Origin: Siphlonurus alternatus
Taxonomy: Eukaryota; Arthropoda; Insecta; Ephemeroptera; Siphlonuridae
Length of the DNA: 64,000 nt
Assembly: GCA_949825025.1 (NCBI GenBank)
Contig: OX463788.1
Location: forward strand, 28,600,340 to 28,664,339
Direction of reading: 5' to 3'
Shown: positions 3,325 to 53,024 of the stretch, in pieces
Layout of the letters: every line of letters starts with the position of its first letter
Position numbering within the stretch: the first letter of the stretch is position 1
The notes under the pieces: model-generated
Databases searched by the model: none
Told to the model about the DNA's origin: nothing
The model's input: only the letters and a program-made list of their open reading frames with translations
Translations under genes and position numbers: made by a program

Positions 3325-3885
3325 CAGATAATAAGTTATAATAACTCTTAATTACTTACAGGGCTTGGGTCTCAAATGACAAGCAAATAATGAAACTTAA
3401 TTGAAACTTCTAATATATAATCATGCTGTGTTGTATATAATACTGCAAGTGCATAACCATCAGTATATATTGCAAAAGCTGCCTAGCTGTAATTTTTATG
3501 TTGTTGTATAATAAATTATATAAATATTATGAAATTCCCAAAATAAAAAAAAAAAAGAAATTAAATATACTTATTAGACATGGTTATATTAACTTAAGTA
3601 ATGTATTAATTGATAATTTGTTTATGTACTATTTTACTAGGGGGGGGGGGGCATGCATGAATATAACAATTATAAAGAATAATAGAATTTTCAAAAAGAG
3701 GTCATAAGCAATTGAATTCAACATTCAACTGATTGCATCAACTGCTATCCTGTTTTAATTTTATTTAAAAAAAAAGAAGAATTCTATATTTTTTTAAAGT
3801 ATTAAATATGCCACATTTTTTCATATATAATATATAATAATATATAATATATATAATATTATATAATATAATATAATATAATATT

Positions 3886-9596: not shown

Positions 9597-9765
9597 CAGC
9601 GCAAATCCTTGGGTTAGAGCTGGACTTGGCACAGCCGGATGCGGGGCCAGGCGAGAATCTCGCGGGGTTGCCTCGTGTTGTGGCTAAGAAGAGGGTGTGG
9701 GAGGCGGAGTACTTGAGCGGCATAATTCTGCATTGAGAGTGCTTTATTTCCACCTAAGGCACCAT
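9597..9765 (+). pseudogene. RLE-type LINE ORF, upstream part, interrupted at 9765
   Basis: Starts directly after the (TAA)n tail of copy D2. One frame is open for 46 codons to TGA near 9733. A shift of one base near 9698 gives a frame that continues to 9765, reading VLERHNSALRVLYFHLRHH. That frame runs on without a break at 14999 (FGIDETP...), once the intervening 5,225-bp element and one GGCACCAT copy are discounted. The frameshift shows this LINE copy is dead. Confidence 0.65.
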
Positions 9766-9774
9766 GAATCACGG

Positions 9775-10142
9775 ATAAAATACCCTTTGATAAAATACCC
9801 TCGGATATAATACCCAGACAAAATACCCTAGGACAAAATACCCTTGGACAAAATACCCTCGGACAATTAACCCTTGGACAAAATACCCTTAGACAATTAA
9901 CCCTTGGACAAAATACCCTTAGACAATTAACCCTTGGACAAAATACCTTCGGACAAAATACCCTGGGATAAAATACCCTTGGACAAAATACCCTTGGACA
10001 ATTTACCCACAGATAAAATACCCTTGGACAAAATACCCTTGGACAAAATACCCTCAGACAAAATACCCTTGGACGAAATACCCTTGGACAAAATACCCTT
10101 AGACGAAATACCCTTGGACAAAATACCCTCAGATAAAATACC
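9775..10142 (+). repeat. 15-bp minisatellite, left array
   Basis: About 24 units of GACAAAATACCCTTG with variants such as GACAATTAACCCTTG alternating near the left end. Because the unit is 15 bp and lacks stops in several frames, it yields repetitive ORFs on both strands (pentapeptides DKIPL and SKGIL). These are not proteins. Confidence 0.9.
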
Positions 10143-10173
10143 CATCACTTTGAGGTTGGGAAAAATTTCAGTT

Positions 10174-10377
10174 TCAATTCAGGGCGAAAAATTCACATTT
10201 TTGAAAATACTGGAATATTTCATTTGCAATACATTCATAAACTAGCTCATTCAAAGAATAATCATCGTTTTGAATAATATATAATAGATATATATGAATC
10301 TCAATTCCAAAACGCTTGGGTAAAAATGCATGTCCCCACTCGTGTTCAGTTCGTTCATATATAGCCGTCTCACTCAA
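10174..10377 (-). CDS. Unrecognised 67-codon ORF inside the 5.2-kb element
   Basis: Minus-strand ORF with ordinary amino-acid composition, in contrast to the neighbouring minisatellite. It has a central TEHEWGHAFLPKRFG and an acidic/aromatic second half (NDDYSLNELVYECIANEIF). The frame is also open a few codons upstream of the ATG. No family assigned. Given its position just inside the left end it could be a remnant of the element's own gene, but that is inference. Confidence 0.3.
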   Translation of the reverse strand: MSETAIYERTEHEWGHAFLPKRFGIEIHIYLLYIIQNDDYSLNELVYECIANEIFQYFQKCEFFALN

Positions 10378-10399
10378 ATATCTTTTAATATACTATACA

Positions 10400-11188
10400 C
10401 ATCAATGCTCGTTTTTTCCTAACGGGGCCGGCTCCGTAGTCTGGTCTTTTTGTCAAAATTATGTAACTAAAAGTTTGGTAAGAAAGAAGTATATGATTTT
10501 TTTCCCCGGTGTCTCAATATTTTTAAGTCACTAATATGCATTAAGAAGTTATAAAGGCTTTTTAACACAACTAAATACTTTTTAAGATAATTTTATTATG
10601 TACCATGTGTACATGTAATTCTATATCTTCAAAAATACAAAATTTCTTCTCATCATTCAAAATGTGAATTAAATATAATTTTTTCTGGTGAATAATGATT
10701 CTGTACAATAAAATAACAAATAAATATAACTGAAATAGCAATACGTATTTTACTATCATGCTTTGTGCTGGTTGTTACCCGTGACAACATAAATTTTAAA
10801 ACCATTATGAACATTTAATTTTATAGCTGGTTTCCATGAGTAAGTTTATAGAACATTCTACTGCAAAAAGCAATGTATCTCTTGTCGACCTTACAATGCA
10901 ACATTATGTTAATACGAAAAAAATTGGGTGGGGAAGCAATGTTTTCTTCTATTCATGAGGTGACGATTTTTTATTCTTACTTTTTGTTTTGTTTTTGCTC
11001 TTTATTAAAAAATAATAAAAAAAATGCATTCATACATTCATTGTAAAATAATTATACCATAGTAATTATGCGATGTTTTATTTAGTATCCCCTGTTCATT
11101 TACATTTACTTATTTCCCCCCCCCCCCCCAAAAGTCCTTTTTGCCTGGGTTGGCTCAAATATATTGCACCCAAATTAACCTACATTAA
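10400..11188. other. AT-rich non-coding sequence inside the 5.2-kb element
   Basis: No convincing ORF; a C run lies at about 11116-11130. Confidence 0.45.
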
Positions 11189-11574
11189 GGGTAAGATAAC
11201 ACGAACAATCGATTGTTGTTATAGTCCCATTTGATTAACATGTAAACCTTAGCAACCTCATAATGATTCTGAATGTTTTTTGAGAGGCAGTTCTTGGCAC
11301 CAAAAAAATATGGAAAATATTTCAAAACAATCGGACGATCCAATTTTTTTAAATTATTTTCTTAGTTTAGGTCTCCATGGGAAAGCCCTATACTAAAAAT
11401 TTAAAAAATTCGTTTAAAAAAATTGGATCGTCCGATTGTTTTGAAATTTTTTCCATATTTTTTTGGTGCCAAAAACTGTCTCTCAAAAAAAATTCAGAAT
11501 TATTATGAGGTTGCTAAGATTTACATGTTAATCAAATGGGACTACAACAATCGATTCTTCGTGTTATCTTACCC
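11189..11574. mobile_element. 386-bp palindromic MITE, TTAA-flanked (piggyBac-like), copy 1
   Basis: Ends are GGGTAAGATAACACGAA and its exact inverse, flanked by TTAA at 11185-11188 and 11575-11578. The arms are complementary over most of the length; the centre lies near TCTCCATGGGAAAGCCC. A second copy of exactly the same length is at 37590-37975. Confidence 0.88.
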
Positions 11575-11786
11575 TTAAAAAATAACATGATAAATAATAA
11601 AATAATTAAAAGGTGCTAAATATTTAATTATTATACTCTACAACTAAACGTATAAAAAAATTAATTATGCTGTGAAAGTATCATGCGCAGGATTCAGTGA
11701 AATTTATTTTACCTTTTTCATGGGCAATTCGCAATAACATATTATAAATTATAGAAAATATAATCATAAATTTATGATTATAATTA

Positions 11787-13808
11787 TTGGTACTGTTGAA
11801 ATCCGAAATATCATATATTTTTAATTTTGGTTGGTTGGTTGGTATTTTGGGGCAATTGACACATTATATTTTTAAATTTATTATATCAATAGGAAACTTT
11901 TTATGCAACATGAAAATTATTGTACCCTGTCCCTTTAATAATAATAATATTGTTAGTAGAGAAAAAAAAGGAAAATTAGGTAATAGGTTGCATACTGCTA
12001 AAAACAAAAGTAAAGAAGCATGGCTTATTTTTAATGAGGAAGCAGGAGTAAAAAGGGGTAAGGAAAAAAATATATCTCTCAAAATTGATAATAAGACTAT
12101 TGATGATCCTTTAGCGGTAGCGGAAATGTTTAGTTCCCACTTTGCGATATATAATAATACACCAAAAAGTGATAACTGCCCATGTGATTATTGTAATTCT
12201 TATAGAAATTATGACATTCCTAGTTTTTTTATTTCTCCAACAACTCCGATCGAAGTTGAGTCAGTTATACGTAAAGTTTGTAAGAAAAATTGCTGTGGTG
12301 TTGATGATATTCCTGGGAGAATACTCATCGATTGTGCATCTCTCATTTCTAAACCTTATTCCATAATCGCGAACTCTTCGTTTAGTCAAGGTATTTTCCC
12401 GGATGCGTTTAAGATAGCTAAAACCATTTGTGTACATAAAGATGGACCCTTAGAATGCATTGATAATCATAGAGGAGTAGCCATTCTGCCGGCGCCATCT
12501 AAAATATTAGAGTACTTAATGTTATCGAGACTAGAAAATTTTTTACAATATCATAATGTAATTTCTCCGAGACAGTATTGCTTTCAGAAAGGAAAATCGA
12601 CTAATTTGGCTCTATTTAATATAATATGTAAAATTATGGATACTATTGATTCCAATAGGGAATGCATTACACTGTCATATGACATGAGTAAGGCGTTTGA
12701 CACGATTGATCACGGACAAATATTAAAGAAACTTGAAGATTATGGTGTTAGGGGTGTGGCTTTAAGCTGGTTCCGCTCATACTTGACAGGTAGATCACAG
12801 TTGGTAGAAATACGACATACAGACGAACATGGTGTTAGTAATGTTCGCTCGTCTATAAAAAATATTACTAGTGGAGTTCCGCAGGGTTCAATTATGGGTG
12901 GTTTTCTTTATATAGTTGACTCCAACGACATCTTTAACATTTTTTCATTAGGCCAAGTAGACAAATATGCGGATGATACTTCGCACTCAATTCCTTTACA
13001 TAAACCTCATGACTTCTCTATAATTCCTGAAATACGTGATGAAGTAGGCAGAATGTCACACTGGTGCTCTAATAACACGCTAAAGTTAAATGTGAAGAAA
13101 ACAAAAATAATGGTATTTCATAGCCCAGGTATTGAGATTTTATTGTCACCGTTAATTTACTTAAACAACGCCAGCATAAATGTTGTTCAGGAGACGAAAT
13201 TCCTTGGTCTAATGTTAACGGACACGTTGAATTGGTCAGCTCATATAACATCACTTAGTTCTAAATTGGTCAAAGCATGTTTTTTAATTTTTAAATTAAG
13301 ACCAATTATGGATATCAAATCTCTCTGTACTTTGTATTATGCATATTTTCAATCTCTAATGTCATATGGGATTATTTTTTGGGGCGCGGCAACTCATGCA
13401 AAGCGTGTTTTTATCTTGCAGAAAAGGGTAATAAGGACTATGTGTTTTAAGCCCAGTCAATTCTCGTGTAAAACATTGTTCCCTAAATTAGATATATTAA
13501 CTTTGCCGTCTCTTTACATTTACGAATCTATTAAATTCATTCGCAAGCACCCGGATCTCTTTGTTATGAATCATGATAATCATAATTACAACCTTAGAAA
13601 CAAGAATGACATATCTATTGTGAGACATAATCACTCTTTCGCTGATAGCGATCCGCGATTTATGTGTGCATCACTGTTCAATAACTTACCAGGATCGTTG
13701 AAGAAAAAAACTGAACAGAGTAATTTTACACAATTATTGAAAAAATTTCTTGTTGAGAAATGCTACTATAATGTTAAAGATTATCGAAATGAAAGATTTA
13801 TCACGTAA
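11787..13808 (+). CDS. Non-LTR retrotransposon reverse transcriptase ORF (673 codons)
   Basis: Encodes the RT of a LINE, which copies its own RNA into DNA at the insertion site. RT blocks are in order: a helix-rich linker from about residue 60 (KNKSKEAWLIFNEEAG), KICVHK-like and HRGVAILPAPSKILEY blocks, YDMSKAFDTID at 298-308, SGVPQGS at 362-368, and catalytic YADD at 394-397. Thumb-like sequence and a C-terminal KKFLVEKCYYNVKDY follow. The first roughly 50 residues look non-homologous, so the listed ATG is probably not the native start. There is no upstream apurinic endonuclease domain, so the copy is 5'-truncated. The frame is uninterrupted. It is a Jockey/CR1-like group member by motif style, not assigned precisely. 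Confidence 0.9.
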   Translation: MVLLKSEISYIFNFGWLVGILGQLTHYIFKFIISIGNFLCNMKIIVPCPFNNNNIVSREKKGKLGNRLHTAKNKSKEAWLIFNEEAGVKRGKEKNISLKIDNKTIDDPLAVAEMFSSHFAIYNNTPKSDNCPCDYCNSYRNYDIPSFFISPTTPIEVESVIRKVCKKNCCGVDDIPGRILIDCASLISKPYSIIANSSFSQGIFPDAFKIAKTICVHKDGPLECIDNHRGVAILPAPSKILEYLMLSRLENFLQYHNVISPRQYCFQKGKSTNLALFNIICKIMDTIDSNRECITLSYDMSKAFDTIDHGQILKKLEDYGVRGVALSWFRSYLTGRSQLVEIRHTDEHGVSNVRSSIKNITSGVPQGSIMGGFLYIVDSNDIFNIFSLGQVDKYADDTSHSIPLHKPHDFSIIPEIRDEVGRMSHWCSNNTLKLNVKKTKIMVFHSPGIEILLSPLIYLNNASINVVQETKFLGLMLTDTLNWSAHITSLSSKLVKACFLIFKLRPIMDIKSLCTLYYAYFQSLMSYGIIFWGAATHAKRVFILQKRVIRTMCFKPSQFSCKTLFPKLDILTLPSLYIYESIKFIRKHPDLFVMNHDNHNYNLRNKNDISIVRHNHSFADSDPRFMCASLFNNLPGSLKKKTEQSNFTQLLKKFLVEKCYYNVKDYRNERFIT

Positions 13809-14436
13809 ATTAGTGCTATGGTATACTGCTTTGTAATGATTTTGTAACGATTCTTGACTTCCTTTCAGTTTAGAAATTTTATATAATTTTGAATTAGGGA
13901 TATATGTATTTGGATAATTTGTATTTTATTAAATTGGCTTGAGTTTGTATACTATGTTAATTTTAGGGTGATAATATAATTTATATTATATATTATATTT
14001 GTATCGAATTTGATCCTTTTCATGTATTGTTCATAAAGTTATGTAATTTTTGGTTAATGGAATGACTTATAAATTCATACATCTCATGTATTCACAACTT
14101 GTTGTTTTGAATATATTTATGCTACGAATTTGCTTTGTCATGATTGGTTCTTGCATCTGTACAATAAGCATTCAAATTTTAATTATTTACATAAAGAGCA
14201 TGAAATTCACGATATATGGTATCTTATTTGATCTGTAGTGGCAGGATTTACAAACTATTTTGTGATCTGTGATATGTATTTTATACTTTGTTGTGCAAAG
14301 TGATACAAGTTGTTATTTATGTATAATTATGGACGATCGACGTTATGTCTTGAGTTTAATATTATTGACTTGCTTATATTGTATAATCAATCGAAAAGCA
14401 ATAAAGATTATGAATTATGAATTATGAATGAATTAT
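13809..14436 (+). mobile_element. LINE 3' untranslated region
   Basis: AT-rich tail of the preceding LINE, ending with AATAAAGATTATG and short tandem GAATTAT repeats at about 14405-14436. Many Jockey/CR1-type elements finish in a short tandem repeat instead of poly(A). The 62-codon ORF inside it is not convincing. Confidence 0.55.
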
Positions 14437-14559
14437 TAATACTGTACTGTACAGTGTATATACAATACATGTGTGCAAAATGTTTGCATGATGTAGGTAT
14501 AATTTTTATCATTCTACGAAATACCTAAGATGCTGTTATATATTATAATATATTGTAAA

Positions 14560-14990
14560 TTGTCTGAGGGTATTCTGTCCAAGAGTGTTTCGTCCAAGGG
14601 TATTTTGTCCGAGGGTATTTCGTCCAAGGGTATTTTGTCCATGGGTATTTTGTCTGAGGGTATTTTATCTGAGGGTATTTTGTCCAAGGGTATTTTGTCC
14701 TAGGGTATTTTGTCCTAGGGTATTTTGTCCAAGGGTATTTTGTCCTAGGGTTAATTGTCCAAGGGTATTTTGTCCTAGGGTAAATTATCCAAGGGTATTT
14801 TGTCCTAGGGTATTTTGTCCAAGGGTATTTTGTCCAAGGGTATTTTGTCCTAGGGTTAATTGTCCAAGGGTATTTTGTCCTAGGGTAAATTATCCAAGGG
14901 TATTTTGTCCTAGGGTAAATTGTCTGAGGGTATTTTGTCCTAGGGTATTTTGTCTGGGTATTATATCTGAGGGTATTTTCTCCGTTTACC
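14560..14990 (-). repeat. 15-bp minisatellite, right array (inverted)
   Basis: About 28 units of GTCCAAGGGTATTTT, the inverse of the left array, with TAGGGTTAATT and TAGGGTAAATTATCC variants interspersed in a semi-regular order. It is open in frames on both strands (CPRVF, YPRTK and similar pentapeptides) and runs into the real LINE frame at 14991, producing a misleading 291-codon ORF. Confidence 0.9.
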
Positions 14991-15648
14991 GGCACCATTT
15001 TGGTATTGACGAAACGCCTGTCATACCATTCGCTCTGTGGGACGTAGAGGCAGTGGTAGAGAACGACCAGGTGAAGATCTTCTGGAATTACTCGTTTCCT
15101 ACCACTCGCCAGCTCCATGCTACCAAGCCAGACATTGTTCTGCTTGAGAAGCGCAAGAAGGTCATGACAGTGATTGAATTTTCTGCTCCTGCGGAGCACA
15201 ACATCACTGACAAGTACACAGAAAAGCGCGACAAGTATCGAGACCTTGTCATGGACTTGCGACAAAACTACCGGGGACATTCGGTGTCTCTTGTTGTCCT
15301 GTTGGTTGGCGTGATGGGCGGGGTGCCTGACACACTACTCTCTGGGCTTCGGCAAGTACCAGGTTGCCGTGGATCCGCTGAGCGGCTGGCGGATGCCATG
15401 CAGAAGGCAGTGTTGCTGGGCTCTCTTCGTCTCCTTCGCGCGCATGGGGAGGTTGGGTGAGGTGCACCCATAAAAATAGAAAAGGCAGCCCTGGAGTTTA
15501 CTGCACGAGAGTGCGGAGCGCCGGGGTCGAGTTTCTCTAGCTGTTGAAGTTGTTAGATGAGGAATACTCTGTTTTACATGGAGCCTGTACTTTCAACTTT
15601 GGCCTGCTGGGGGAAAAAAAAAAAAAAATAATAATAATAATAATAATA
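14991..15648 (+). pseudogene. RLE-type LINE: ORF C-terminus, 3' UTR and TAA tail
   Basis: The frame from RHHFGIDETP to TGA at 15458-15460 resembles the C-terminal region of LINEs with a restriction-like endonuclease, the enzyme that nicks target DNA in R2/R4-type elements. Visible are FWNYSFPTTRQ, then KPD with its Asp codon at 15131, then VIEFSAPAE with its Glu codon at 15176 (PD-X14-E spacing), then EKRDKYRDL and a conserved-looking LLSGLRQVPGC..MQKAVLLGSLRLLRAHGE tail. The 3' UTR runs to about 15613, followed by A plus (TAA)n. The family assignment rests on motif recognition, not a search. The upstream half is at 9597-9765. Confidence 0.7.
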
Positions 15649-25060: not shown

Positions 25061-25187
25061 AAATGTATCGAAGGGGAAATGAACCGAAAATAGGTGAGCG
25101 ATGTTGCCAACAGCATTTTTATGGGCTGTGCCTTTTTGTTTGAGGTGCATGGAGCTCCACGACGATTTAAATTTCGATTCCCTATTG

Positions 25188-25490
25188 GAAATTTACAATT
25201 GTATTCAGCCAAATTACAATTGTAATTTGACTGATTACAATTGTAAAACTAAGATTGCAATTGTAAAACTTGGGTTACAATTGTAACATTTGGATTACAA
25301 TTGTAATGTTCATGATTACAATTGTATTATTTGAGATTACAATTGCTTTCAGGTTCTGATACAATTGTATTTGTTAGATTACAATTGTATTTCTTAGATT
25401 ACAATTGTAATTCTTAGATTACAATTGATTTTTGTGCTTACAATTGTAATTTTTACAATTGTAATTAGATTGCAATTGTATTTGGATTAC
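25188..25490. repeat. TTACAATTGTAA palindrome array, left
   Basis: Fifteen CAATTG cores in about 300 bp, most as GATTACAATTGTAA, spaced roughly 15-25 bp apart. Each core is itself self-complementary. Confidence 0.9.
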
Positions 25491-25699
25491 ATAATTACTA
25501 AAAAAAAATGGTGTTTTCATTGTTAATTTATATTACACGTACATTTTGTCAAATTCTTATTACTTCATTCAATTAATATTTTTTTATGCTAAGTACGTAA
25601 CTTGGCTGTAATATCTAATTAAGATACAAAGGTACTATATATATGAAGCTTTAATTGATATTATATATTTAAAATAAATAATTATTTTTGGAAAAAAAA

Positions 25700-26390
25700 C
25701 ATATGGATCGACCATCGACCCCTTATAGGGTCACAAAAAAAAGTCAGATCAAATCGATGCATGTTAACATATAAAGTGTAACAAAAAATATAAAAAAATT
25801 CAATTTTTTTGAATTAATGCTATATTTTAATGCATTAGGGGTCAACCCCTACTAGGCCATTGTGGTTGTATTATGTCATCAAAAGCACTTAACTATATAA
25901 TAGCTGCATGAACCTGTCTCGTAGTATAATATATATATCACTTTTTTTTTTAAATATGAATTTGAAAAAAATCAAGGGTCGACCCCTAAAAGGGTCACAT
26001 TGAAAAAGGTAAAAATATAATTCAGAGATGTATGTTAAATTATATAATATATATTATGAAAAAATGGTTAGAAAAAAAATTAATTTTTCAATCAAAAGTT
26101 AGGGGTCGACCCTTAAAGGGTCATTAAGATTAAAAAAACTCAATGTTGAACCTGTATGTAGTCCTCACATATTTTGTCAATTTTTTTATTAAAATTTGCA
26201 TACTTTTAAAAAAGACCCCCGCTAAACCCCAAGGGTCGACCCTTAAAATTAGTGAATTAGAGCTCTAGGTTATATTTTAAGTTGATTGCTAATTTCAGTT
26301 TTGCAATTTTTTAAGAAAAAAAAAATTCAGGGTCTTTTGACCCTGAAGGGTTGAAGGGTCGCAAATTTAAGGGTCACCATTAGAACCGCC
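25700..26390. repeat. About 125-bp tandem array centred on GGGTCGACCC
   Basis: Near-palindromic cores such as AGGGGTCGACCCTTAAAGGG occur near 25708, 25850, 25977, 26101, 26230 and 26330, with AT-rich spacers. Later units are more degraded. Confidence 0.75.
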
Positions 26391-26504
26391 ATCAAATTTT
26401 ACCCTAGGATCGAAATTTATATGACATTATATTGAAATGCCCCCTCGTCATTTCCCCATAACTTTTATTTATTTTATATACCTCAATATTCTTCATCCTA
26501 TTAA

Positions 26505-26598
26505 GAAAGCAGTAGCAGCGCAATGGTAAGAGTATGATCAACAGTGGTAACCGAAGTACAGCAACGCAGGTTTGGGTTAGTAGTTAGATTGGTGACCA
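26505..26598 (+). mobile_element. 5S-derived SINE head, truncated
   Basis: Reads ACCGAAGTACAGCAACGCAG then GGGTTAGTAGTTAGATTGGT and GACC, aligning in order with the A-to-C box region of 5S rRNA and with the head of the SINE at 19030-19320. No SINE body follows. GCAGCGCAATGGTAAGAG just upstream resembles a tRNA A box. Confidence 0.5.
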
Positions 26599-26614
26599 CT
26601 TTTTGTAAATTTTA

Positions 26615-26770
26615 CAATCGTAATTATTACAATTGTAATAAATGCAACTGTAGTTAAATACAATTGTATTAAGGCCTTTACAATTGTAAAAATTACCATT
26701 GTAAAAGGACCAAAACGCAATGGTATTTTTATGGAGCATACAATTGTGAATTTTACAATTGTAAATTTCC
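26615..26770. repeat. TTACAATTGTAA palindrome array, right
   Basis: Five exact CAATTG cores plus variants (CAATCG, CAACTG, CAATGG), mirroring the left array at the other end of the palindromic element. Confidence 0.85.
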
Positions 26771-27044
26771 AATAGGGTTCATTTTCTTTTTGGCTTAATT
26801 TCCTTTTCGGTTCATTTCCCTTTCGGTTTAAATTCAAATATTTTCGGTTCATTTCCCGGAACCCGTAAAAGACATTATATATTACACTTAAGAATTTTAA
26901 TTTTCAATATATATTTTAGAATTTTATTTTTCTTTTTACTTAATTAATTCCCAATTAATCAATACAAAATCTTAATTTCAATATTGAAGCAGTGAACTTA
27001 TTATGATAGTATGCAATTTTTTTAACATATGCATTTAACCATGC

Positions 27045-27637: not shown

Positions 27638-27938
27638 AATGAACCCTCGTCAGAAAACCTTCTTTAATATGATCCATATTTATTTATCCAAGTAAAGTAA
27701 AAATAAAGTACAAGAAAAAGTTTCGAAGTTGCATAATTTTACCAGTTATATGTTCACCACTAGATAACATATTGGTAGTTTGTTAACTTCAGCCAAAAAG
27801 ATACAATAGTTTCATTCCTCCGAATAGCAGGTATTTTGGCCACATTTCAAAAATTATTTTTTAGTTAATTTATGGAATTCGAAAAAAAGAAATAAAAATA
27901 ATAACAATAACCTAAAAGTGAGATATATGTGAAAGATT

Positions 27939-29873
27939 ATGCATAATCATGTTTCATGTAAAATGATCATTCATAAGCAAAACATAGCTAATGCAAAATT
28001 TAAAAAAAATGATCTTGAACTGCAAAAAGCAAATAATAAAGTTAAAGCCACATGGAATATAATCAATAAAGCATGTAATACTAAAAAATTGTTGCACAAA
28101 AAAAATCATGAATTAAGTATTAATGATGAAATAATCACAGATCCTAATCAAATATGCAATATTTTCAATGTTTTTTTTGTTAAAACTGTTGAAGATTTAA
28201 TTTCGGATAAATTCCCACCCTCTTATTATTTTGAAAATAATATTATTCAAAATGATGAAAATGCCCCTATATTAAATTTTCAAATGATAGAGTCGACTTA
28301 TATATTAAATGTAATGAAATCATTGCCTAATAAATATGCGGCGGGACCAGATGAGATCCCTTATACAGTTGTTAAATACTGTGCCCATGTATTAGCTATA
28401 CCTCTAACAAACTTAATTAACCATTCAATATTTGAAGGTATTTTCCCTGATTGTTTAAAAACATCAAAAGTATATGCTACCCACAAAAAAGGCCCATTAA
28501 CAAACATTGATAATTATAGACAAATTTCAAATACTTCAGTTTTTGGTAAAATTCTTGAACATACTTTAGACGACCAACTCACTACTTATCGAGTTGAAAA
28601 TAATTTAATTACCCCCTGTCAGCATGGATTTTTAAAATTCCGATCTACAGATACTGCAATGTTCGATTTATTAAATCATATATATGCAGCGCTAGACCGT
28701 AAACAATATTGTATTGCAATATTTTTTGATTTATCGAAAGCCTTCGATAGTTTGGATAAAAATATTTTATTGCATAAGCTTGATAACATTGGTGTTGGAG
28801 TATCAAGTCGCAACTTGATAGATTCATATTTGACAAACCGTGAACAATATGTTGAAATTAACGCAATAATCAATGAGGAAAATCAAACTTATAAATCAGA
28901 AAAATTGCCCATAAAACTTGGTGTGCCTCAAGGAGGAAAAATTTCAGCTTCCCTTTTTAATACGGGAACAAATGATTTACCTGATTATATAAAAAATGCT
29001 AAATTGGTGGTATATGCTGATGATACAACGGCTGTAGTTACAGCCGATAGTGAAATTGAATTAATTCACAAAGTTAAACTTACTATAAATGAAGTGCACA
29101 TGTGGTGTACAAATAATAAACTTATGCTGAACACAGCAAAAACTGAATATATTCAATTTCACTCTCCCAGGCAAATTCCAACACATAGCTATTTACTACA
29201 ATTATCCGGAGAAATTATTAAAAGAGCCGAGTCGGTCAAATTTCTTGGATTGTACATCAATGAATGCTTGGATTGGACTACACATGTTAATATTTTATGT
29301 AAAAAGCTAAATTCAGCTAATTTTATGTTGTATTCAATTAGAAATTATGTTTCTCATGAAACATTGCTAACTATATATTATGCACATTTTTATTCACATT
29401 TAGCATATGGTATAATTAATTGGGGATGCAGATCTGAGCTATTAACTCGTTGTTTTATTTTACAAAAGAGAGCTCTTAGAACAATATTAAGGCTCCCAAA
29501 GGGACAGTCTTGTATTTCACACTTTAAAGCCAATAATATGTTAACTGTCCCTTGCATTTATATCTTAAATTGTGCCTCTTTTAAAAAAAATAATCCAAGT
29601 TTTTATGTTCAAAATGATTGTTTCCACAATTATAATACTAGACATAAATCGAATGTTGCTACTGAAAAACATAATTCCGAATTCTTCAAAAACTGTTCTC
29701 TGTACCGAACAGTTAAATTTTTCGAATTTTTACCTAATTGTCTTAAAGAAATAGAAATAAGTAATAAACTATTTCGAACTAAACTGAAAAAGGTATTGAT
29801 ATCCAAAGAGTTTTATTCCATTAACCCATTACAGCCCAGCCTTTTTTCTACTAAAATTTGGCCATTAAATTGA
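27939..29873 (+). CDS. Non-LTR retrotransposon reverse transcriptase ORF (644 codons)
   Basis: A second LINE RT, clearly different in sequence from the one at 11787-13808. In order: linker (KVKATWNIINKACNTKK), AAGPDEIPYTVVKYC near 127, YRQISNTSVFGKILEH, FFDLSKAFDSLD at 262-273, GVPQGGK at 328-334, and catalytic YADD at 359-362. LMLNTAKTEY, FLGLYINECLDWTTHV and a C-terminal KKVLISKEFYS follow. No endonuclease domain is present upstream, so it is 5'-truncated; an in-frame TGA lies three codons before the ATG. The last 17 residues or so (from NPLQPS) come from an inserted TIR element at 29822-30744, not from the LINE. Confidence 0.9.
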   Translation: MHNHVSCKMIIHKQNIANAKFKKNDLELQKANNKVKATWNIINKACNTKKLLHKKNHELSINDEIITDPNQICNIFNVFFVKTVEDLISDKFPPSYYFENNIIQNDENAPILNFQMIESTYILNVMKSLPNKYAAGPDEIPYTVVKYCAHVLAIPLTNLINHSIFEGIFPDCLKTSKVYATHKKGPLTNIDNYRQISNTSVFGKILEHTLDDQLTTYRVENNLITPCQHGFLKFRSTDTAMFDLLNHIYAALDRKQYCIAIFFDLSKAFDSLDKNILLHKLDNIGVGVSSRNLIDSYLTNREQYVEINAIINEENQTYKSEKLPIKLGVPQGGKISASLFNTGTNDLPDYIKNAKLVVYADDTTAVVTADSEIELIHKVKLTINEVHMWCTNNKLMLNTAKTEYIQFHSPRQIPTHSYLLQLSGEIIKRAESVKFLGLYINECLDWTTHVNILCKKLNSANFMLYSIRNYVSHETLLTIYYAHFYSHLAYGIINWGCRSELLTRCFILQKRALRTILRLPKGQSCISHFKANNMLTVPCIYILNCASFKKNNPSFYVQNDCFHNYNTRHKSNVATEKHNSEFFKNCSLYRTVKFFEFLPNCLKEIEISNKLFRTKLKKVLISKEFYSINPLQPSLFSTKIWPLN

Positions 29874-51150: not shown

Positions 51151-52270
51151 TCAGTCTGTAATCACATATGGCCAAACAAGGAACGGTTGTCCATCATAAG
51201 ATTCTCTCCACACATGTTCGTGCCATTCTCTGAACTCTGTTCTACATTCACTCTCATTATCCCCATCACACACTTCAGTCTTAACACATTCCATATTACC
51301 AGTAACACCTTCAATTTTATTTCCTGATAATACAGATTCTAAAAGTTCTTCTGACACCTCTTTTACCACTTTTACTTGTTCTCTACAATGATCATCATTA
51401 TATGTTTCATCATTATCTACCTCAACTTCCTGGTCATCTTCGTGGTCAGACCACATAATAGTAGTAGGATCTAGCGGAGGTAGGGCAGATAGGATTTCAC
51501 GCACGTCTCTTGATGTGGGAGAACCTAATGGTGATGGAGAATAACACTTACTCTGCCTATCCTCTTCTGCTTGTGAACTCAGGAACTTTGCTAAATGTTC
51601 TGTTTTATTTCTCGACACTTCATCTGGGGATCTAGGCGCAAGGAGGGAATTAAGTGCACGATGTCTGGAACTTGGTTCTGGACCATCTTTATTCGGTATT
51701 GCAGAAACAGGAGGAGGGGACCCGCCCCTGGCTTTTAAATCGTCTAATAATTCTCGAGTTGTTTTTACTTTGGCAGATCGTCCAATTTGAGCCATTTTTG
51801 CTTTCACTATATCATTGTCACTGGAGACTAGTGTTTGAGGAGAAATACCTGAAGCACTACTTGGAGTAGTAGCAGTTGTAATAGTACTAGATTTACTGAT
51901 TTTTCCTATACAGTCTAAAGTAGGCACTACATTTGAGGCACTTTGAGCACTCTCTTCCAAACGGTCTTTCACATAAAATCCATTAGGAGTTGCTCTTCGT
52001 TTTGCTGGAAGTGGTCCATCCTTGTCTGGAGAATCTGCATCTTTTCTCAAACGTTTATTGTTAGCATGTGTTCGAGCTACCACCTCTGCATTAGGAGCAT
52101 GAGCAATGCGGGCAGGGGGCAGACGGGGGGAGGCTCGTAATGACAAGGAGCCTGTAGAACCTGGAGTGGGGCTAGGGGGAAGTGAAGGAACCTTTCGCAA
52201 TGACGTAAGCCCTGGGCTGGAGCTGCTTGCAGTCGACATTGCTGGGGAGGTCACTGCCGAGCGGCAACTT
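51151..52270 (-). CDS. MED26: MED26, last coding exon (372 codons plus stop)
   Basis: Mediator subunit 26 links the Mediator complex in the nucleus to TFIID and to elongation factors. The acceptor TATCTTGCAG precedes 52270; the first base completes a Lys codon begun in the previous exon. The exon codes a long, low-complexity linker rich in S, P and T, with two basic patches (NNKRLRKDADSPDKDG, PAKRRATPNG) that could serve nuclear import. A conserved-looking KAKMAQIGRSAKVKTTRELL block and an acidic stretch before the C-terminus follow. It ends FLVWPYVITD then TGA at 51151-51153, recalling the PYV-x-D ending of animal MED26, whose C-terminus anchors it to Mediator. The frame is intact. Confidence 0.85.
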
Positions 52271-53024
52271 CTGCAAGATACAAAATTCTTAGTTCTAGTT
52301 AGGCAGCCAAACCCCATTTAAAATATTTACTGTAAATGACAATGCTTAGTCACTATATATAATAATTGAATTGCTTGGTTATTATATAATTATTTATTTA
52401 TAATGGAAGTGGTTCTTAAATCACATCCTGGAAAGAAGTCTCCCGTGCTTACTTTCTCATTAGCATTTTCATTAGAAAATAAAATCCAGTCCGAGTCAAC
52501 ATGTAATTTAACAAAGAGCCTAATGGCAGAGACACCATGGCTATCTAAAAAAAAAAAGAAAAAAATACTAGCTAAAATATTTTAACATTATTGAGATAGT
52601 TAGCTCCACTTTAAGATGTTAGATATTTAACCTATACTATGTATAATTTTAAAGTAAAAATTTAAAAAAACTTGATATTCAAAATAATTTAAATAATTGC
52701 AACAAACTGACAAAAATCAGGAGCTATACAGTACCCTTTATGTATTAGCTGCACTCCTGATAACCGATAATTGTTTTTCATTTGCTGCATTGATTTCCTT
52801 TGGTAAAAATTTATGATTTTGTTATTAGTTGTTTTTTACTGAATATTAATTGACAACATACAGAAAAAGTAGTCAACATAAAAAAAGTAGTTTGAATATA
52901 AATCACAATGATAATAATAAAGATAAAATGAAAAGTAATACAACAAAACTACTGCTGAGAAGAATACCCGGTACTTTAGATTATTTGCTATGGATGTGAA
53001 AGTGTTTTAGATATATTTACGTAC
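52271..53024 (-). other. MED26 intron
   Basis: 754 bp, donor GTACGTAAAT and acceptor TTGCAG. AT-rich, no other feature. Confidence 0.8.

What the first reader, a model, noticed from the sequence alone, without database searches (positions are those of the whole stretch)
9758..14998. A 5.2-kb mobile element whose terminal inverted repeats are 15-bp minisatellite arrays, inserted exactly into a LINE ORF
Seen: GGCACCAT at both borders; the LINE frame (HLRHH / FGIDETP) is continuous when the 5,225 bp and one GGCACCAT are ignored. The tips are inverted (15 of 20 bases), and both lead into inverted arrays of a 15-bp unit with the same irregular short unit near each tip. This is stronger than a chance pair of satellites: the arrays behave as the ends of a transposed unit. 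Known: 8-bp duplications are made by hAT, Merlin-like and Zisupton-type transposases. Inference: this is a non-autonomous (or eroded autonomous) DNA transposon with minisatellite ends, possibly giving transposase many binding sites. I cannot assign it to a named superfamily.
Basis: partly seen in the sequence, partly recalled or inferred. Interest (0 to 1): 0.9.

Follow-up and report, generated by a model that had tools for sequence, protein, structure and literature searches.

The report
Mayfly jumping gene with repeat-array ends
The feature is one copy of a young, numerous family of DNA transposons in a mayfly that seem to carry no transposase of their own and whose two ends are long arrays of a 15-letter repeat; it is a well-preserved new example of a known kind of jumping gene rather than a new kind.

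Summary
Window 9766-14990 is an insertion flanked by GGCACCAT, with inverted 15-bp arrays of 25 and 28 units at its ends. Chromosome lengths identify the host as the mayfly Siphlonurus alternatus, X chromosome. The left tip (up to 2 mismatches) occurs 410 times genome-wide, the right tip 175 times. Of 30 copies read at both ends, 25 have exact target duplications: 18 of 8 bp, 7 of 9 bp. Most copies are about 2.7 kb; the window copy is 5.2 kb because a 2.48-kb LINE landed inside it. Copies differ from their consensus by 0.86% (24 copies), so the family is young. No transposase frame was seen in the copies checked. Each tip is an asymmetric 7-bp end, then GGA, then 15-bp repeats. This and the mixed 8/9-bp duplications match Mutator-like elements such as Tm1 (root-knot nematodes) and Muta5 (Aedes) better than hAT, Merlin or Zisupton. 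MULE transposase genes exist in this genome (28 matches), but none could be tied to these tips. Likely mechanism: a MULE transposase acting in trans, with the repeats as multiple docking sites; the outermost ~11 units are stable, inner ones vary in number. New member of a known kind.

The parts
9758..9765 (.). left target site duplication GGCACCAT
   Evidence: exact 8-bp match to 14991-14998
9766..9785 (+). left tip: 7-bp asymmetric end GAATCAC, then GGA and the rest of the first repeat unit
   Evidence: at least its first 16 bases in 30 of 30 loci; 410 places genome-wide with up to 2 mismatches, control 0
9773..10143 (+). left array, 25 units of GGACAAAATACCCTT type counting the tip unit, one 13-bp unit near the tip
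10144..11951 (+). element interior, no transposase frame seen, shared with other copies at about 95-99%
11185..11578 (.). near-perfect palindrome with TTAA at both ends, seen at least in part in 25 of 30 loci; the other 5 leave the element before it
11952..14433 (+). nested LINE, probably 5'-truncated (reverse transcriptase, TTATGAA-type tail), absent from the other copies aligned
14434..14559 (+). remaining element interior before the right array
14560..14983 (-). right array, 28 units counting the tip unit, inverted relative to the left array
14971..14990 (-). right tip: 7-bp asymmetric end GGTAAAC (read inward), then GGA and the rest of the first unit
   Evidence: 175 places genome-wide with up to 2 mismatches, control 1
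14991..14998 (.). right target site duplication GGCACCAT
14999..15460 (+). host: rest of the disrupted LINE ORF (C-terminal region)

Best explanation
This is one copy of a young, high-copy, non-autonomous DNA transposon family of the mayfly Siphlonurus alternatus, most likely a Mutator-like (MULE) derivative of the Phantom/Tm1/Muta kind. Shown: fixed tips, 8- or 9-bp target duplications, many dispersed copies, no transposase frame in the copies checked. Inferred: a MULE transposase encoded elsewhere binds the 15-bp repeats of both ends, brings the ends together, cuts at the asymmetric 7-bp tips and inserts with an 8- to 9-bp stagger. The outermost ~11 units look like the working end; the inner units expand and contract like an ordinary minisatellite. 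The window copy landed in a LINE ORF and later received another LINE inside it.
For: Copies: 410 left tips and 175 right tips, up to 2 mismatches. Of the 100 listed exact left tips, 69 have an exact right tip within 40 kb in the expected inverted orientation, 58 of them 2.49-3.33 kb away; 3 pairs lie in the wrong orientation. Target duplications exact in 25 of 30 copies, 18 of 8 bp and 7 of 9 bp; 0 of 3400 at shifted positions. In copy L048 no ORF free of the arrays exceeds 78 aa, and of six such ORFs none has a Pfam match over cut-off. MULE-specific: mixed 8/9-bp duplications as in Muta1 and Muta5; 7-bp asymmetric ends, GGA, then 13-15-bp repeats as in Tm1; MULE transposase genes present in the genome, 28 matches, seven of them in open frames of 554-569 aa.
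Against: No MULE gene was found near these tips. For the 12 MULE matches in the part of the genome with a complete exact left-tip list, the nearest left tip is 58 kb away; for 14 matches on C1-C7 the nearest exact right tip is 31 kb away. The 10 left tips with an unusual second unit are not near a MULE match either. The 450 bp behind the stop of one 569-aa MULE frame, and the whole 900 bp fetched there, hold no repeat unit with up to 2 mismatches. Of the 100 exact left tips, 31 have no exact right tip within 40 kb. Tandem-repeat ends also occur in P-superfamily Galileo, so anatomy alone does not fix the superfamily.
Confidence: 0.8

Rival explanations
1. The same kind of non-autonomous transposon, but mobilised by a P-superfamily (Galileo-like) transposase, whose long ends also hold tandem repeats with binding sites.
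For: Galileo long inverted ends contain tandem repeats with transposase binding sites.
Against: Recalled: P elements make 8-bp and Galileo 7-bp duplications; here 7 of 25 exact ones are 9 bp. Short asymmetric ends before GGA match Tm1. P transposases were not searched for in this genome.
Confidence: 0.08
2. hAT, Merlin, Zisupton or another superfamily with 8-bp duplications.
For: 18 of 25 exact duplications are 8 bp.
Against: 7 of 25 are 9 bp; the 40 left flanks show no strong target consensus, only a lack of G at -5 (0 of 40) and few A at -1 (2 of 40); subterminal 15-bp arrays are not known to me for these families (recalled). Their transposases were not searched for.
Confidence: 0.07
3. The family is an eroded autonomous element whose own coding region decayed, rather than a derivative without coding sequence.
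For: An interior of about 1.9 kb could once have held a gene.
Against: Copies differ by only 0.86% from their consensus, yet in L048 no ORF free of the arrays exceeds 78 aa and six of them have no Pfam match over cut-off: the amplified source was already non-coding.
Confidence: 0.04
4. Two unrelated minisatellites that happen to flank a stretch of DNA.
For: Both arrays are ordinary tandem repeats by themselves.
Against: Other copies have the same tips, order of outer units and interior, and 25 of 30 have an exact duplication.
Confidence: 0.005

Closest known systems
Tm1 (Mutator/Foldback, root-knot nematodes; PMC3169594, part 1 of the discussion and passages seen)
   Same: Asymmetric 7-bp ends, then GGA, then a variable number of 13-15-bp tandem repeats; target duplications 8-10 bp; mostly non-autonomous copies
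   Different: Different sequences of ends and repeats; Tm1 duplications are mostly 9 bp, here mostly 8; Tm1 has a known MULE gene; its authors call Tm1 inactive and decaying, while these copies are young
Muta1 and Muta5 (MULEs of Aedes aegypti; PMC5225508, abstract and passages seen)
   Same: 8- or 9-bp duplications; short terminal motif followed by 12-15-bp subterminal repeats; hundreds of derivatives, for Muta1 with varying repeat number
   Different: Muta5 has 9 copies of its 15-bp repeat, here mostly 24-30 per end (21 in L040); transposase-bearing copies known there, not here
Rehavkus (PMC6446971, passages seen)
   Same: Insects among the hosts, a minisatellite near an end, long inverted ends
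   Different: 9-bp duplications, minisatellite described before the 3' end only, PHD-finger transposase (not tested here)
TU elements of sea urchin (recalled; PMC4079207 passages only name the sea urchin among foldback hosts)
   Same: Recalled: inverted ends with a 15-bp tandem-repeat outer domain and 8-bp duplications
   Different: Sequence relation not tested; far host; original papers not seen
Tetris and Galileo foldback elements of Drosophila (PMC4079207, PMC3688188, passages seen)
   Same: Long inverted ends with internal tandem repeats; Tetris 8-10 bp duplications, no transposase found by its authors
   Different: Repeat units about 220 bp in Tetris; Galileo is P-superfamily

Membership tests
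Animal MULE of Tm1/Muta/Phantom kind | Target duplication 8-10 bp, varying within the family | tested here: met
   Of 30 copies, 18 have an exact 8-bp and 7 an exact 9-bp duplication, 5 no exact one
Animal MULE of Tm1/Muta/Phantom kind | Long inverted ends with short (9-15 bp) subterminal tandem repeats | tested here: met
   15-bp units, 24-29 in the right ends of 15 copies; left arrays 378 bp long in 31 of 40
Animal MULE of Tm1/Muta/Phantom kind | Short terminal motif outside the repeats, differing between the two ends, followed by GGA (Tm1) | tested here: met
   GAATCAC-GGA and GGTAAAC-GGA, compared with the passage
Animal MULE of Tm1/Muta/Phantom kind | MULE (DDE) transposase gene bounded by the same tips | tested here: inconclusive
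   28 MULE matches in the genome, none near listed tips; exact left tips listed only for C1-C5 and C6 to 8.9 Mb, exact right tips only to C8
Animal MULE of Tm1/Muta/Phantom kind | FLYWCH zinc finger in the transposase | not tested
   requests did not complete
hAT | Constant 8-bp duplication (recalled) | tested here: not met
   7 of 25 exact duplications are 9 bp
Rehavkus | 9-bp duplication and PHD-finger transposase | tested here: inconclusive
   18 of 25 exact duplications are 8 bp; PHD-finger transposase not searched for
P superfamily (Galileo) | THAP-domain P transposase | not tested
   no search for it was made
TU elements | Sequence relation to sea urchin TU repeats | not tested
   no TU sequence at hand; description recalled

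The most novel reading that the evidence does not exclude
The ends are a graded docking platform: about 11 outer repeat units per end form a fixed, selected transposase-binding scaffold, while the inner units are free to expand and shrink, so that the number of docking sites, not the tip sequence, sets how well a copy competes for transposase supplied by another element.
Probability: 0.3. Interest if true: 0.55.

Novelty: new member of a known kind. Interest (0 to 1): 0.36.

Why it matters
Whether the tandem repeats of Foldback/Phantom-type ends are transposase binding sites was called untested in 2013 (PMC3688188, passage seen). This family offers many near-identical natural copies with differing unit numbers in one chromosome-level genome, so the effect of unit number and position could be tested. 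It also adds a mayfly family, from an early-branching insect order (recalled), to the elements with repeat-array ends.

Tried and rejected
Exact scans of viral contigs and genome contigs for a two-unit pattern: 0 places each. Pfam on six interior ORFs of L048: only a DUF5963 match below its cut-off. Paper searches for sea urchin TU elements listed no paper that describes them (listings only, plus passages of PMC4079207). Idea that longer copies are autonomous: of 69 paired tips, 9 are over 3.5 kb apart, and by coordinates none holds a MULE match. Of these nine, L043 carries a 2.5-kb insertion with hAT-like ends, and in L003, L004, L009 and L017 the fetched part behind the break has no ORF above 136 aa (which also covered L014, not one of the nine); the other four were not read. 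One 900-bp piece at the end of a 569-aa MULE frame showed no array. Selection on the repeat core: in 24 of 31 equal-length left arrays (7 dropped for interior identity under 93%), 8 low-variation columns (GA, A, TACCC) hold 9 differences in 4416 against 38 expected from the interior rate; the columns were chosen after seeing the data and the copies were picked by similarity to the window array, so this is only suggestive.

Full report
What is there. Window 9766-14990 is bounded by GGCACCAT on both sides. It starts and ends in inverted arrays of a 15-bp unit, 25 and 28 units. The unit core (up to 1 mismatch) is found 41 times in the window, all in these arrays, against 0.43 expected. The left tip is GAATCAC-GGA-..., the right one, read inward, GGTAAAC-GGA-...; 15 of 20 bases agree.

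Host. The searched genome has 455,680,777 bases, and its eleven main contig lengths equal the chromosome lengths of Siphlonurus alternatus in PMC11069044 (passages with Table 2 seen); C11 is the X chromosome. A MED26-like gene in the window has its best match in the mayfly Ephemera danica, 61% identity.

Family. A search with the left end gave 41 matches; the tool scored only the best of 998 candidates: the window itself, 39 other near full-length ends at 93-98% identity, and one partial match at 83%. At least the first 16 bases of the tip are present in 30 of 30 fetched loci, and the 8 bases outside differ between them. Allowing 2 mismatches, the left tip has 410 places (control 0) and the right tip 175 (control 1). 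Within the stretch where both exact lists are complete (C1 to about 8.9 Mb of C6), 69 of 100 left tips have an inverted right tip within 40 kb, 58 of them 2.49-3.33 kb away; 2 are 1,712 bp and 9 exceed 3.5 kb; 31 left and 7 of 76 right tips have no such partner, and 3 pairs lie in the wrong orientation.

Target duplications. Of 19 ten-kb loci, 16 have a right tip in the stretch; 14 of these 16 have an exact duplication, 8 bp in 8 and 9 bp in 6. L040 and L043 have none; L034, L041 and L045 show no right tip (the L041 right array runs into masked or unknown bases). Of 13 further copies chosen for an intact interior, all 13 have the right tip and 10 have an exact duplication, nine of 8 bp and one of 9 bp; L007 has 7 of 8 matching, L011 a 10-bp match shifted by one base, L020 none clear. 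One of the ten (L006) lies in a GT repeat, so its length is ambiguous. With the window copy this is 25 of 30: 18 of 8 bp, 7 of 9 bp. At 3400 shifted positions there was no exact 8-bp match. L031-L039 are the same copies as L022-L030, so 40 distinct copies were seen in all, 30 of them at both ends.

The nested LINE. The other copies aligned run straight through where the window copy has 11952-14433, apart from L031, which has another insertion of about 0.6 kb near there. The stretch encodes a reverse transcriptase (Pfam RVT_1, E 7.9e-24, no other Pfam domain); many of its 120 listed relatives have endonuclease and RT domains, so it is probably a 5'-truncated LINE; it ends in TTATGAA repeats. 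The element itself landed in another LINE: the joined frame matches 38 proteins, the best seven of them across the junction.

Inside the arrays. In the right ends of 14 copies other than the window, each of units 1-12 is the same in 12 to 14 of 14 copies; from unit 13 on agreement falls, in part because gains and losses shift the count. Aligned by unit to copy L048, 0 of 10 copy-positions with a unit gain or loss in left arrays and 3 of 45 in right arrays fall in units 1-11, in 15 copies. Relatedness of copies is not corrected for (one change near unit 27 counts 10 times), and the copies were found by similarity to the window's left end, so the right ends are the fairer test. The window copy lacks the second right unit that the other 14 have. 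Interior divergence from consensus is 0.86% over 944 columns in 24 of 31 equal-length copies, 7 dropped for low interior identity: a recent burst.

What it works like. The mixed 8/9-bp duplications, short terminal motif and 12-15-bp subterminal repeats are those of Aedes MULEs: all 14 families have 8-9 bp duplications, 10 of 12 long-ended ones have 9-15-bp subterminal repeats, and Muta5 has an 8-bp terminal motif and 9 copies of a 15-bp repeat (PMC5225508, passages). The closest single match is Tm1: asymmetric 7-bp ends, GGA, 13-15-bp repeats, 8-10-bp duplications in 45 of 53 copies (PMC3169594, part of the discussion and passages). Galileo repeats bind their transposase, while those of Foldback and Phantom were called untested (PMC3688188, passages). 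So the best reading is a MULE-type element mobilised in trans, with repeats as docking sites; the last step is inference.

What is missing. No transposase frame was seen in the copies checked: L048 by ORF list and Pfam, the window copy (apart from array frames only the LINE frame), and L031, L034, L035, L040, L041, L043 and L045 by a list of frames of 150 aa or more only. MULE genes are there (28 matches, five of them in 569-aa frames; the control search rings in 3 of 14 genomes), but none of 12 in the listed range is within 58 kb of an exact left tip, none of 14 on C1-C7 within 31 kb of an exact right tip, none of 10 odd left tips is near a MULE match, and the 900 bp at the end of one 569-aa frame hold no repeat unit. 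Left tips beyond 8.9 Mb of C6, right tips beyond the start of C8, and inexact tips were not listed, apart from the copies fetched and the ten odd ones, so this is not proof of absence.

Verdict. Real, well explained, a new member of a known kind. The hope for something outside known superfamilies is not borne out; the stable outer and variable inner zone of the arrays is the part worth following.

Noticed in passing
window 25180-26777: A second element-like unit with repeat-array ends: a perfect 24-bp inverted end CCCTATTGGAAATTTACAATTGTA at 25180-25203 and 26754-26777, each leading into arrays of TTACAATTGTAA-type palindromic units; no shared word of 5 to 11 bp was found between its two flanking stretches.
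   Followed up: partly
window 11185-11578: A near-perfect palindrome with TTAA at both ends inside the element, seen at least in part in 25 of 30 loci; it may be an older inserted foldback MITE that was amplified with the family.
   Followed up: partly
L043 (C1:2276243-2286242): A 2.5-kb insertion inside a copy whose ends read CAGGCACGGACTGG and its inverse, hAT-like by recall.
   Followed up: no
G000:C4:7842032 and C4:7849407: Two same-strand copies, both 1,712 bp, 7,375 bp apart: possibly a segmental duplication of a shortened copy.
   Followed up: no
window 27933-29873: Another open frame of 646 aa that reads like a LINE reverse transcriptase; not searched.
   Followed up: no
window 51151-52317 (-): MED26-like host gene, best match Ephemera danica.
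   Followed up: partly
G000, five places: Five MULE transposase matches in frames of exactly 569 aa on C3, C4 and C11: a possibly recent autonomous MULE family of this mayfly.
   Followed up: partly
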